Shown piece after piece: positions 35,924 through 41,864 of a DNA stretch of 43,387 nt (positions within the stretch are counted from its first letter, which is position 1; each line of letters begins with the position of its first letter). The DNA comes from Actinomycetes bacterium (GTDB lineage Bacteria > Actinomycetota > Acidimicrobiia > Acidimicrobiales > Acidimicrobiaceae). The stretch lies in NCBI GenBank assembly GCA_021784785.1, contig JAJYHJ010000081.1, positions 1-43,387 of the forward strand. Direction: 5' to 3'. The position numbers were made by a program, and so were the translations under genes. The notes under the pieces were generated by a model. It was not told where the DNA came from, did not search any database, and saw only the letters and a program-made list of their open reading frames with translations.

Positions 35924-37843
35924 TCACGCAACCATAGACGAACCCGGTTCGATTATAGGTTGGAGCCCAGTTTGAAACAGGGCGAGAGCAAGTGCTGCTC
36001 GCGCTCGAGTTTGTCCAGGTACATACTCAACTCCAAGTACTTGCGACTGCTGGCCAGACGTTGCTACCGAACTAGAGACTCCACGAATTACGACCTTGAT
36101 CGGGTAGGTATGTTCGCCGAGGTTAAAGAGAAGAATTCCTTGGTCGCCTAACAACACGTTAACCACCGCGGACACCACTTTAACTTTAGCTCCAGTTAGT
36201 GATACATCCAGCAAAGAGACGTTTTCATTGTTGAAGCACGCGGGAGCCGCTACGTCAAAGCGTACCGCCGCTCGGCGTTCCGCTCCGAAACGTTCGGATC
36301 TAATCCGTTTAATGGCTGCCACCAACAAGGCTCCGTTTACTACGAGCCATATGAGCGAGCCGTACGCAAGCCACGGGACATCGTATCGCAGGGGAGTAAG
36401 TTTAAGAAGCGTCGCAACCGTCCAAACAAACGTTAACCCTACAGCACCTATAAGGATCCATAGTAGCACTGGCACTGGAATTCTCTTTCGACGATCTCCG
36501 GTTTTGCCCTTACTCGTGACAGTGAAGGAGTGTTGGCGATCGACAAGCAAGTGCAAGGTAGCTTTGAGGTTGGCCGGCATCCGCACCAATTCAAAGACTG
36601 TAGCGATGCCTTGAGGCGCCATATCTCTGCATAGGCGCCGCATGGCGTAGCGCTGTACAAGTAATGCGGAGAGGAAAAAGGTGACAAACACACTTATCGA
36701 AGCTCTGATTGGAACCGCTCCGGTCCAAAGTACTACAAGCGGCGCAAGGATATAGCCAAGCGATCTCCAAGCATCGAACCAGCCGGTAAGAGTCGTTAAA
36801 TAACTTATACGCTGCATAAGAGTAAGACCGCTAACGAACGCTGGATTCTCTTTCCGTAGTAGCTGCATTGCCCCCGTACCCCATCGCAGACGTTGACTTA
36901 GGTACTGTTCGGCATTTGCTGCAGCCAGACCATGAGCCAGAACTTCGTTGTGATAAACAGTTCGCCAACCGTGCCGATGCAATCGCAGAGTTGTGTGGAT
37001 ATCCTCGGTTATGGTATCTGTGGCCAATCCACCAACCTCCTCCAACGCGATCTTACGAAAAATCGCTCCAGTACCACAACAAAACGCCGCATTCCACCGA
37101 TTACGTCCTGGTTCAAAGGCTCGATAAAATAACCTCTGCTCGTTATAACTATCTCGATGTTCAAAGCTATCGAGGTTGTAGAAGTCTTGAGGGGTTTGAA
37201 CCAGGGCAACACGCGGATCGTCGAAGTAGCCCACCGTGTTACTAAGAAAGTCTTCGGATGCGACATGGTCTGCGTCCAAGATCGCAACTAAATCAGCGTT
37301 TATCTGAGGGAGAACGTAGTTGACATTACCTGCTTTCGCGTGGTCATGTTTCGGCCGAGCTACGTAATTTGCACCAAGATCGTCAGCCAGATTAGCAAGC
37401 CATGATCTATTTCCATCGTCTAGGATCCACGTATTATGAGGCAGTCGCATACTAACAGCCGCAGCAACCGTTGGAAGAATGATCTCCTCCGATTCGTTGT
37501 AAGTTGGAATAAGGACAGCAATCTTCGATTCGGTGCAAGTCCTTTCAGTAGTTGGCGTCAATCCATCAAGATCCCATAGATTAACTGTCAACATTGCAAA
37601 ACCCAACGTAGCGTGAATCTCGAGAATAATCAAAGGGATGGAGATCCACCAAACCGTTAGATTGAGTGTTGCTATAACTCTCCATGTAACGTATGATACT
37701 GACACAAGAAATGCAACGATAGCGATCGCTTGGGTGCGGCGTTTCTTACCGATTGGCTCGGGAGGAGGTAGGTTCGTCAAAGGGAATGGATCGTTACCGA
37801 GTGGAGTTACATTTTTATCCGGTAGTGGTCGCCCGAAGTTCAC
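35924..37843 (-). CDS. BcsA-like family 2 glycosyltransferase with C-terminal PilZ domain
   Basis: A 639-aa membrane synthase of the cellulose-synthase type. Two N-terminal helices (about 35-85) precede a GT2 domain with ILDDGNR, LDADHVAS (the D-x-D), TEDIHTTLRLHRHGW and QRLRWGTGAMQ, the four catalytic motifs of BcsA. About five to six helices follow, then PilZ at about 540-625 with RAAVR (R-x-x-x-R) and DVSLTG (D-x-S-x-x-G), both c-di-GMP-binding motifs intact. BcsA moves glucose from UDP-glucose into a growing beta-1,4 chain and exports it. No bcsB, bcsZ or export gene lies nearby, so polymer and sugar are inferred. GTG start at 37843. Confidence 0.88.
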   Translation of the reverse strand: MNFGRPLPDKNVTPLGNDPFPLTNLPPPEPIGKKRRTQAIAIVAFLVSVSYVTWRVIATLNLTVWWISIPLIILEIHATLGFAMLTVNLWDLDGLTPTTERTCTESKIAVLIPTYNESEEIILPTVAAAVSMRLPHNTWILDDGNRSWLANLADDLGANYVARPKHDHAKAGNVNYVLPQINADLVAILDADHVASEDFLSNTVGYFDDPRVALVQTPQDFYNLDSFEHRDSYNEQRLFYRAFEPGRNRWNAAFCCGTGAIFRKIALEEVGGLATDTITEDIHTTLRLHRHGWRTVYHNEVLAHGLAAANAEQYLSQRLRWGTGAMQLLRKENPAFVSGLTLMQRISYLTTLTGWFDAWRSLGYILAPLVVLWTGAVPIRASISVFVTFFLSALLVQRYAMRRLCRDMAPQGIATVFELVRMPANLKATLHLLVDRQHSFTVTSKGKTGDRRKRIPVPVLLWILIGAVGLTFVWTVATLLKLTPLRYDVPWLAYGSLIWLVVNGALLVAAIKRIRSERFGAERRAAVRFDVAAPACFNNENVSLLDVSLTGAKVKVVSAVVNVLLGDQGILLFNLGEHTYPIKVVIRGVSSSVATSGQQSQVLGVEYVPGQTRARAALALALFQTGLQPIIEPGSSMVA

Positions 37844-39111: not shown

Positions 39112-40374
39112 TTAGCCGCATAGAACAAGTTCATTACTAAGGCTGTCTTCCAAAATCTCAAGTACATACTTTGCCGATTGGTTCCATGTGAAGCTCCGCG
39201 TATGTAAGTACGCTTCTTCTCCCATCTCCACACCTCGATCCGATTCTCCAATAACGTCAATTACCGACTCGGCAAAACTCCGAGGGGCCCTGTCTTTTAC
39301 GAGATGTCCAGTGCGACCGTGTTTCACCAAGGTCAACAGACCTCCGACTGCCGATGCTACCGTCGGTCTACCTGACGCAGAGGCCTCAAGAGCCACGAGG
39401 CCGAAACTCTCCGTTCGCGAAGGCACAAGCGCGAGATCGCAAGCACGATAGAACGACGAGAGAAGTTCATGGGGTTGCGGAGCAAACAGATGAAGTCTCT
39501 CTTTGAGTCCACCCTGCGCACTAAATCGTCTAATACGTTCTAGTTCACGAACTCCGTCATATCCAGAGGGACCTCCAACAAGAACATAGTGGACGTCTAA
39601 CTCGTTGGAGACCAACTCTAGAGCCTCCGCACCTAACGAAAAGCCCTTTAGTGGTTGGATCCGTCCCACCGAAAGAACAACTCTACCCTCTTGTGGTAAT
39701 CCAAGAGCTTGTCTTGCCATTTTTTTGTCTCCGGGTGCAAAAAAAGCCCTATCAACACCCAAAGGGACGATCCTAGTTTGAGCCGGACTGAGCCCGTAAA
39801 GTCTAGTGATCCACTCAGCCTCCGGAGCGCAGGACGCTAATATTGCGTCCGAACACCTCATGACCCTTTGTTCATGCCATACTCGCACCGTAGAGTCGTA
39901 ACCATCATCTGGAGAAACTCTTCCGATCCTCTTCGCCTTCTCAAGAGTATGGAAACTCGTAAATAATGGAACATTAAGTTCATGCTTGATCGTATGGCCC
40001 GCAATACCTGATAACCAGTAGTTAGCGTGCACAAGGTCAACCTTGTTACCGCGCTTTTCTTTGATATGCCGCAAGACGCCATCGGTAAAATCTCTTACGA
40101 AGTGAAGGAGGCTCTCCTTGGGCACGTCAGCAGGTGGACCAGCAAGCACGTAATGAACTTCGAAACCCGGTTCAACTCTCACCGTGCCTGGAACATTCTG
40201 ACCGTCGGCTCTTGTGTAAACATCACAACAAATTCCTAGCCGAGCAAGCGCCGTTGCCAGCTGTCTGACATACACATTCATTCCACCCCCATCTCCCACG
40301 CCCGGTTGCGCCAAGGGCGAGGTGTGATAAGATATCATGGCGATACGCAATGAATCGGTTCCCTTCACTTTCAC
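39112..40374 (-). CDS. mshA: D-inositol-3-phosphate glycosyltransferase, MshA-like
   Basis: A 420-aa GT4 retaining glycosyltransferase. MshA joins UDP-GlcNAc to 1-L-myo-inositol-1-phosphate, the first step of mycothiol synthesis in actinobacteria. Seen: AMISYHTSPLAQPGVGDGGG and MNVYVRQLATALARLG at the N-terminus (the GDAGGMNVYV acceptor loop of MshA), HANYWLSGIAG, SVGRIQPLKGFSLG and the UDP-binding E-x7-E motif ESFGLVALEASASGRP. GTG start at 40374; an in-frame GTG two codons on has AGGTGA before it. Third gene behind sodX and rsiG. Other GT4 functions remain possible, but the N-terminal motif favours MshA. Confidence 0.88.
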   Translation of the reverse strand: MKVKGTDSLRIAMISYHTSPLAQPGVGDGGGMNVYVRQLATALARLGICCDVYTRADGQNVPGTVRVEPGFEVHYVLAGPPADVPKESLLHFVRDFTDGVLRHIKEKRGNKVDLVHANYWLSGIAGHTIKHELNVPLFTSFHTLEKAKRIGRVSPDDGYDSTVRVWHEQRVMRCSDAILASCAPEAEWITRLYGLSPAQTRIVPLGVDRAFFAPGDKKMARQALGLPQEGRVVLSVGRIQPLKGFSLGAEALELVSNELDVHYVLVGGPSGYDGVRELERIRRFSAQGGLKERLHLFAPQPHELLSSFYRACDLALVPSRTESFGLVALEASASGRPTVASAVGGLLTLVKHGRTGHLVKDRAPRSFAESVIDVIGESDRGVEMGEEAYLHTRSFTWNQSAKYVLEILEDSLSNELVLCG

Positions 40375-40400: not shown

Positions 40401-40922
40401 CTACGACTTGCGTTCGTTTAAGACCGAATCGATCGACGCGTCTCCACTTTTATAGCGGTCTTTAACCTCGGAACTCAAAACTTTCAATACATCGTGTAAC
40501 TGGTGGCGCTTCGAAGATATTCCCCGTTCTGCCTCTTCAAGGGTCGCTATTAAGCGATCATGATCAAGGCTTGTCCCCTCCGTCAAATTATTCATCCACT
40601 CATGGGCCAGTCCTTGAAGAGCCTCAGGAAGTTCAACCTCAACAAACCTAGATGACATCTCCGGTCCCTTTACATGATGGGCTAAACTCTTTGACAGCTC
40701 TTCAGCCACACCAGATACGTCTTCATCTCTCGCGGGAAGCCCGGCGTCCTTCAATATATCGATGCGTGCCTGCAAAAGGCGTCGCACATAGGAAAGCATC
40801 GACTCGATCCCCTGAGCCCGCTCGCGCCTCGCCCGAAGATCGTCCATAGTAATACTATGAGCACCAGTTAAGAAACTGGGGGATAGAACCTCGTCAACAG
40901 CTTCTTCTAGAGTTGTAGGCAT
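40401..40922 (-). CDS. rsiG: RsiG-like anti-sigma factor with a c-di-GMP-binding motif
   Basis: A 173-aa, mostly helical, soluble protein. Residues 40-55 match the RsiG motif E-x3-S-x2-R-x3-Q-x3-D exactly (E40, S44, R47, Q51, D55 in IESMLSYVRRLLQARID). The C-terminal helix aligns with the second motif of two-motif RsiG proteins: E132, S136 and R139 are kept, but Q and D are H143 and K147. The tail DRYKSGDASIDSVL also matches the family. In Streptomyces, RsiG loaded with c-di-GMP holds the sporulation sigma WhiG; a one-motif Rubrobacter form acts as a dimer. Start is ATG 40922, 9 nt after AAGGAG; a GTG at 40949 overlapping sodX is less likely. Lies 26 nt before mshA. Confidence 0.85.
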   Translation of the reverse strand: MPTTLEEAVDEVLSPSFLTGAHSITMDDLRARRERAQGIESMLSYVRRLLQARIDILKDAGLPARDEDVSGVAEELSKSLAHHVKGPEMSSRFVEVELPEALQGLAHEWMNNLTEGTSLDHDRLIATLEEAERGISSKRHQLHDVLKVLSSEVKDRYKSGDASIDSVLNERKS

Positions 40923-40945: not shown

Positions 40946-41350
40946 TCACAAAGCTCCTGATCTGTCTAACGGATAGTAGCGCATCTTCACGGTGCCCACG
41001 ATCAAATCTAACGGCACAGGGCCAAAGTGCCTCGAGTCGGTCGATGAATTAGAGTTGTCTCCTAAAACAAATGCCTCGATATCTGATAGGCTCTCTACAC
41101 GCTTGGTTAACAACCTTGATGTATCCCTAGGGTCTTTCACAACTACCACATCTCCCGCCCTAAACCTCTTGCCCTTACGGACCAATACCCTATCACCAGG
41201 AGCTAAATTAGGTAACATAGAATCTCCCACGACTTCATAGCGCATATACATTCGACTAACGCCGAACAGCACTACTGAAGGTGGGAACAACAACACCGAA
41301 AGCAGTCCGACCTTTGTCACTTTACGTTTTTTGATCCCTTTGGACTCCAC
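40946..41350 (-). CDS. sodX: Nickel-type superoxide dismutase maturation protease (S24/S26 family)
   Basis: A 134-aa membrane-anchored signal-peptidase-like protein. A helix near residues 13-33 precedes VVGDSMLPNLAPGDRVLV (catalytic Ser), DTSRLLTKRVES (catalytic Lys) and LGDNSNSSTDSRHFGPVP, the last being the mark of Ni-SOD proteases. SodX removes the N-terminal leader of SodN so that His1 of the nickel hook is exposed. It is divergent from sodN with 97 nt between. GTG start lacks a good Shine-Dalgarno. First gene of the sodX-rsiG-mshA run. Confidence 0.91.
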   Translation of the reverse strand: MESKGIKKRKVTKVGLLSVLLFPPSVVLFGVSRMYMRYEVVGDSMLPNLAPGDRVLVRKGKRFRAGDVVVVKDPRDTSRLLTKRVESLSDIEAFVLGDNSNSSTDSRHFGPVPLDLIVGTVKMRYYPLDRSGAL

Positions 41351-41447: not shown

Positions 41448-41864
41448 ATGAATGTCATAACTAGGGTACTCATCGCATTTGACAAAGTTTCTAAGCCTTC
41501 AAAAATCCATGCTCACTGTGACCTTCCATGTGGGATATACGATCCCGCGCAAGCGCGCATCGAAGCCCAAGCAGTGAAGGCAATAATGGAAAAGTTCAAT
41601 GCTTCCGACGATTCCGTTTTCAAAGAAAGAGCGGTTACGATTAAAGAAGAGCGGGCGGAGCTAGTCAAGCATCACCTTTGGATACTTTGGACAGACTATT
41701 TCAAGGCAGAACATCTAACAAAATATCCCCAACTCCACGAACTCTTCTGGAAGGCAACCAAGACAGCTGGAGAATCAAAGAAGACCAATGACGTAACGGT
41801 CGGCGATCGACTACTATCAGAGATAGATCAAATTGCTGAGATATTCTGGGAGACCAAGAAGTAG
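41448..41864 (+). CDS. sodN: Nickel-containing superoxide dismutase precursor
   Basis: A 138-aa enzyme converting superoxide to peroxide and oxygen. The nickel hook HCDLPCGIYDP starts at residue 23, after a 22-residue leader that SodX should cut before His; the hook supplies His1, Cys2 and Cys6. The rest is the four-helix body (ARIEAQAVKAIMEKF, KHHLWILWTDYFKAEHLTKY, LHELFWKATKTAGESKKT). ATG 41448 follows AAGGAG by 6 nt. Two hairpins lie downstream. No iron or manganese SOD gene is in the window. Confidence 0.96.
   Translation: MNVITRVLIAFDKVSKPSKIHAHCDLPCGIYDPAQARIEAQAVKAIMEKFNASDDSVFKERAVTIKEERAELVKHHLWILWTDYFKAEHLTKYPQLHELFWKATKTAGESKKTNDVTVGDRLLSEIDQIAEIFWETKK

What the first reader, a model, noticed from the sequence alone, without database searches (positions are those of the whole stretch)
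40401..40922. RsiG-like protein with one perfect and one half-lost c-di-GMP motif
E40-S44-R47-Q51-D55 fits E-x3-S-x2-R-x3-Q-x3-D exactly. The second helix keeps E132, S136 and R139 but has His and Lys for Gln and Asp. Streptomyces RsiG is known to use two motifs in one chain, and a Rubrobacter form uses one motif as a dimer. This protein looks like an intermediate or a diverged state, useful for tracing how the switch evolved.
Basis: partly seen in the sequence, partly recalled or inferred. Interest (0 to 1): 0.6.

Follow-up and report, generated by a model that had tools for sequence, protein, structure and literature searches.

The report
RsiG anti-sigma with one altered half-site
This is a genuine relative of RsiG, a protein that uses the signal molecule c-di-GMP to hold back a flagellar/sporulation-type sigma factor; in this acid-loving Ferrithrix lineage one signal-reading residue was lost secondarily, so it is not an evolutionary halfway form.

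Summary
Window 40404-40922(-) encodes 173 aa with an exact E-x3-S-x2-R-x3-Q-x3-D at 40-55 and E/S/R/H/K at 132/136/139/143/147. Pfam RsiG matches helix 1 (4e-16); sequence and predicted fold match Streptomyces venezuelae RsiG across both helices, so this is a twin-motif RsiG. The genome is a Ferrithrix (Acidimicrobiaceae) with a WhiG/FliA sigma (277 bits), 11 GGDEF and 12 EAL domains, flagella and pilus-type ATPases. "Half-lost" is only partly right. Among 174 distinct homologues His is the commonest residue at 143 (113; Gln 17), and His works in Conexibacter RsiG, though in its only motif. Only position 147 is unusual: Asp in 153, Lys in two. Ferrithrix plus a sister genus carry K, K, E, N, E there, nested among Asp-bearing twin-motif proteins: a derived change, not an intermediate. 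Best explanation: a working c-di-GMP-armed anti-sigma of WhiG/FliA with an asymmetric site. RsiG co-occurs with WhiG/FliA (41 of 42 WhiG-bearing relatives) and flagellin (50 of 53 against 134 of 243), suggesting it restrains flagellar genes. No binding or anti-sigma activity was tested.

The parts
40401..40922 (-). rsiG, 173 aa twin-motif RsiG homologue (ATG at 40922; the GTG at 40949 is an in-frame upstream alternative)
40758..40805 (-). motif 1, residues 40-55 (ESMLSYVRRLLQARID): E40 S44 R47 Q51 D55, all canonical
   Evidence: S and R invariant in 174 homologues
40482..40529 (-). motif 2, residues 132-147 (ERGISSKRHQLHDVLK): E132 S136 R139 kept, H143 the usual residue in this lineage, K147 in place of Asp
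40482..40484 (-). codon AAA of K147, the one really unusual motif residue
40931..40936 (-). ribosome-binding-site-like AGGAGA upstream of the ATG
   Evidence: read directly
40946..41350 (-). Ni-SOD maturation protease-like signal peptidase (S26), upstream neighbour; its stop ends 23 bases before the rsiG ATG, probably one transcription unit
   Evidence: synteny
39112..40374 (-). MshA-like GT4 glycosyltransferase, downstream neighbour conserved next to rsiG
41448..41864 (+). nickel superoxide dismutase (sodN), divergent, part of the conserved block

Best explanation
The gene encodes a monomeric twin-motif RsiG of a Ferrithrix species. Two long antiparallel helices each offer one half-site for an intercalated c-di-GMP dimer, and the loaded protein sequesters the genome's WhiG/FliA-family sigma factor until c-di-GMP falls. 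The helix-1 half-site is canonical. The helix-2 half-site keeps the ribose-binding Glu and Ser, the guanine-reading Arg and a stacking His, but has Lys where an Asp reads the outer (splayed) guanine. The likely result is a c-di-GMP site that still works but is asymmetric and possibly weaker at one end; an acidic residue one turn earlier (D144) may partly stand in. The likely output is surface appendages (flagella and/or type IV pili), not sporulation. Shown here: homology, residues, predicted fold, partner sigma, c-di-GMP enzymes, gene context and co-occurrence. Inferred: ligand binding, anti-sigma action, monomeric state, regulon.
For: RsiG Pfam match 58.8 bits, cut-off 27. phmmer to 6PFJ 5.8e-13 through both helices. 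AlphaFold model pLDDT 82.5 with helices 26-59 and 121-159; the only PDB folds with E below 0.001 are three 6PFV RsiG chains, with modest TM 0.51-0.53. Own genome has a WhiG/FliA sigma, 277 bits against a cut-off of 189.6, with K-x3-G-R matching the three residues that touch c-di-GMP in WhiG (PMC8325347). 11 GGDEF and 12 EAL domains. RsiG and strong WhiG co-occur: 41 of 42 WhiG-bearing relatives have RsiG, p 2e-9. dN/dS about 0.10 against the nearest homologue. Flagellin and a flagellar gene cluster are present. Class-wide, 50 of 53 flagellin-bearing genomes have RsiG against 134 of 243 others, p 1e-8, not corrected for relatedness. G010 (2,158,157 bp, one contig) has RsiG, WhiG and flagellin but no strong type IV pilus ATPase.
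Against: No binding or interaction was tested. Asp at the last motif position reads the Watson-Crick face of the outer guanine (PMC8325347), so Lys should cost affinity there. The binding data for a His variant come from a single-motif protein, not from motif 2. Matches to the flagellar promoter consensus are hardly more frequent than the control in the own genome (90/87 vs 82/78), and those upstream of flagellin genes are not significant. RsiG is present in 134 sampled genomes without a flagellin match, so flagella cannot be its only output.
Confidence: 0.72

Rival explanations
1. The helix-2 half-site is decaying: the protein still binds the sigma factor, but c-di-GMP dependence is weakened or lost, making it a nearly constitutive anti-sigma or one controlled by other means.
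For: Residue 147 is K, K, E, N, E in five sequences of Ferrithrix and its sister genus, a spread that looks like relaxed constraint. rsiG evolves faster than its neighbour GT4: 83, 73 and 54% identity against 96, 90 and 75%.
Against: E132, S136, R139 and H143 are fixed in the same five sequences, and helix-2 dN among the three closest sequences is low (0.09-0.11). Non-acidic variants elsewhere in the lineage also keep E, S and R.
Confidence: 0.17
2. Altered contact or altered ligand: the acidic guanine reader has moved one turn from 147 to 144, or Lys147 now reads the outer base differently (for example its O6), possibly tolerating a non-guanine base.
For: Of 11 homologues with a non-acidic residue at 147, 9 have Asp or Glu at 144, against 49 of 161 of the rest, p 0.001.
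Against: Controlling for relatedness it is only suggestive: 7 independent pairs, median p 0.125, and it was picked out of nine positions after the fact. No structure with ligand was modelled.
Confidence: 0.07
3. An evolutionary intermediate between the ancestral single-motif dimer and the twin-motif monomer.
For: One perfect and one imperfect motif in one chain.
Against: Full twin-motif length and fold. The Ferrithrix clade (support 98) lies within Asp-bearing twin-motif homologues; the fewest Asp/non-Asp changes on that tree are 5. Single-motif RsiGs are known from Rubrobacteria and Thermoleophilia (PMC8325347).
Confidence: 0.02

Closest known systems
Streptomyces venezuelae RsiG (PDB 6PFJ, 6PFV), monomeric twin-motif c-di-GMP-dependent anti-sigma of WhiG
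   Same: Full-length homology, two helices with motifs in register, same predicted fold, WhiG-family sigma in the genome
   Different: His in place of Gln and Lys in place of Asp in motif 2; the genome has flagellar genes and pilus-type ATPases
Rubrobacter radiotolerans RsiG (PDB 7LQ2-7LQ4), single-motif homodimer
   Same: The same motif in the first helix; weak sequence match (E 0.12-0.32)
   Different: Has no second motif helix and works as a dimer; the window protein carries both helices in one chain
Conexibacter woesei RsiG, single-motif with His at the fourth motif position
   Same: Shows that His at the stacking position is compatible with c-di-GMP binding (Kd 25 uM alone, 1.7 uM with WhiG; PMC8325347)
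   Different: There the His is in the only motif and Asp is kept

Membership tests
RsiG (Pfam PF22802, c-di-GMP-dependent anti-sigma) | Sequence match above the curated cut-off | tested here: met
   58.8 bits against 27
RsiG (Pfam PF22802, c-di-GMP-dependent anti-sigma) | Antiparallel two-helix coiled coil as in S. venezuelae RsiG | tested here: met
   By prediction only: model pLDDT 82.5; the three PDB hits with E below 0.001 are 6PFV RsiG chains, TM 0.51-0.53
RsiG (Pfam PF22802, c-di-GMP-dependent anti-sigma) | Motif E-x3-S-x2-R-x3-[Q/H]-x3-D on helix 1 | tested here: met
   Exact match, residues 40-55
RsiG, twin-motif type | The same motif complete on the second helix | tested here: not met
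   E, S, R and H present; Lys in place of Asp at 147. It descends from and probably works like the twin-motif type, but the strict motif is broken at one position
RsiG (Pfam PF22802, c-di-GMP-dependent anti-sigma) | A WhiG/FliA-family sigma partner in the genome | tested here: met
   G000:C111:623-1294, 277 bits, K-x3-G-R contact residues kept
RsiG (Pfam PF22802, c-di-GMP-dependent anti-sigma) | Binds c-di-GMP and, loaded, binds the sigma factor | not testable with these tools
   Needs purified proteins
Single-motif RsiG | Short protein lacking the second motif helix | tested here: not met
   173 aa with a second helix 121-159 aligned to S. venezuelae RsiG

The most novel reading that the evidence does not exclude
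Ferrithrix RsiG is an anti-sigma of the flagellar sigma factor whose c-di-GMP site has been rewired on one side: the outer-guanine reader of helix 2 was given up or shifted from 147 to 144, giving an asymmetric switch with a changed threshold, in a lineage where RsiG generally restrains flagellar genes.
Probability: 0.15. Interest if true: 0.6.

Novelty: new variant of a known kind. Interest (0 to 1): 0.4.

Why it matters
It corrects the reading of a striking motif: the change is a late, lineage-specific edit of a twin-motif switch, not a fossil of its origin. It also shows that the second half-site is looser than the published account of 130 twin-motif homologues suggests, since in this lineage the fourth position is mostly His or Phe, not Gln. 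The lineage-wide link between RsiG, WhiG/FliA and flagellin points to a c-di-GMP brake on flagellar transcription through RsiG, which could be tested in cultured Ferrithrix thermotolerans (Asn at 147).

Tried and rejected
Flagellar promoter patterns: no exact match in the own genome; with two mismatches the counts are near the reversed-pattern control except in Ferrithrix thermotolerans, 91/97 against 47/45. TAAA-N16-CGAAG-like matches about 105 bases upstream of flagellin in three relatives are not significant one by one. No Ferrithrix-specific WhiG change fell in the K-x3-G-R contact motif. The two rsiG copies in MAG DBS1-3.bin104 lie in the same gene order on two contigs, so I read them as two populations in one bin, not proven paralogues. 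Helix 1 against helix 2 inside the protein: 6 of 35 identical, not significant by itself.

Full report
Observation. The protein is a true RsiG: Pfam PF22802 4.4e-16 on helix 1, and S. venezuelae RsiG at 5.8e-13 over residues 23-168, which places H143 and K147 opposite the Gln and Asp of the second Streptomyces motif. The predicted structure has two long helices (26-59 and 121-159) and finds only 6PFV RsiG chains with E below 0.001, with modest TM-scores; the stretch between the helices is predicted with low confidence.

Host. The window is contig C28 of a 2.39 Mb, 88% complete genome. Its same-genus genome G003 has an rsiG contig of 133,165 bases, the length of NZ_FQUL01000003.1 of Ferrithrix thermotolerans DSM 19514, which a contig scan returned at 54% identity. 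So by the database's grouping the window comes from a Ferrithrix species.

Is the second motif half lost? I collected 195 loci with 174 distinct homologues, nearly all from the same class (Acidimicrobiia), with a few records named otherwise. Motif 1: Ser and Arg invariant, Gln 134 or His 40, Asp 156 or Glu 16. Motif 2: Glu 170, Ser 172, Arg 172, then His 113, Phe 34, Gln 17, Tyr 8, then Asp 153, Glu 8, Asn 5, Lys 2. His143 is therefore the norm. The published study states that His can make the same stacking contact, and Conexibacter RsiG with His binds c-di-GMP (PMC8325347), although those statements concern the first or only motif. Lys147 is rare: this protein and one of two copies in MAG DBS1-3.bin104. 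Ferrithrix and one sister genus together carry K, K, E, N, E.

When did it change? On a tree built without that column, the four Ferrithrix sequences form a clade (SH-aLRT 98) that joins the sister genus with weaker support (80), inside Asp-bearing twin-motif proteins. This speaks against an intermediate between single- and twin-motif forms. The gene is under purifying selection (dN/dS about 0.10 against the nearest homologue), though it evolves faster than its neighbour.

Partner and signal. The genome has a WhiG/FliA sigma far above the family cut-off with the K-x3-G-R residues that touch c-di-GMP in known WhiGs (PMC8325347), and many GGDEF and EAL domains. In 60 genomes of the genus, family and order, RsiG and a strong WhiG occur together in 41, WhiG alone in 1, RsiG alone in 4 (three of these 71-83% complete), and neither in 14; 'strong' means at least 240 bits, a gap in the list that I chose by eye. 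Some WhiGs in the family have Arg for Lys or Ser for Gly in the contact motif.

Output. The genome has flagellin and a flagellar cluster (FliS, FliF, FliE, FliH, FlgD, rod proteins and a MotB-like protein by Pfam), and strong pilus-type ATPases. G010, whose length is the one I recall for Acidimicrobium ferrooxidans, has RsiG, WhiG and flagellin but only weak matches to that ATPase family; G021 has RsiG, WhiG and the ATPase but no flagellin, at 84% completeness. Class-wide, flagellin-bearing genomes nearly always have RsiG, and in five genomes rsiG lies within roughly 18-30 kb of a flagellin gene. These are correlations not corrected for relatedness. Promoter evidence is inconclusive.

A possible compensation. 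Non-acidic 147 goes with an acidic residue at 144 in 9 of 11 cases against 49 of 161, but after allowing for relatedness this is only suggestive (median p 0.125) and it was found after the fact.

Context. The order sodN, Ni-SOD maturation protease, rsiG, MshA-like glycosyltransferase is kept in Ferrithrix and, in whole or part, in two neighbouring genera, and a GT4 gene follows rsiG in more distant families too. The published study found RsiG in 3 of 4 Acidimicrobiales and linked the switch to sporulation and type IV pili (PMC8325347). A search of the held library for RsiG with flagella listed no paper that appears to test a flagellar role in this class; I did not read all the hits.

Verdict. 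A derived variant of the twin-motif RsiG switch; moderately interesting, with a testable one-residue question and a broader flagellar hypothesis.

Noticed in passing
window 35924-37843 (-): Cellulose-synthase-like GT2 with a C-terminal PilZ domain (slightly below the Pfam cut-off), another likely c-di-GMP effector about 3 kb from rsiG.
   Followed up: no
L138 and L139 (MAG DBS1-3.bin104): Two versions of the sodN/protease/rsiG/GT4 block in one bin, RsiGs about 74% identical to each other, one with Glu147 and one with Lys147; probably two mixed populations.
   Followed up: partly
G145, G167, G262, G099, G083: rsiG lies roughly 18-30 kb from a flagellin gene on the same contig in these genomes.
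   Followed up: partly
G003 (Ferrithrix thermotolerans): About twofold excess of flagellar-promoter-like matches over the reversed control (91/97 vs 47/45), not clearly seen in the other five genomes scanned.
   Followed up: no
window 10668-34591: Complex I (nuo) genes followed by haem biosynthesis (hem) genes; ordinary content.
   Followed up: no
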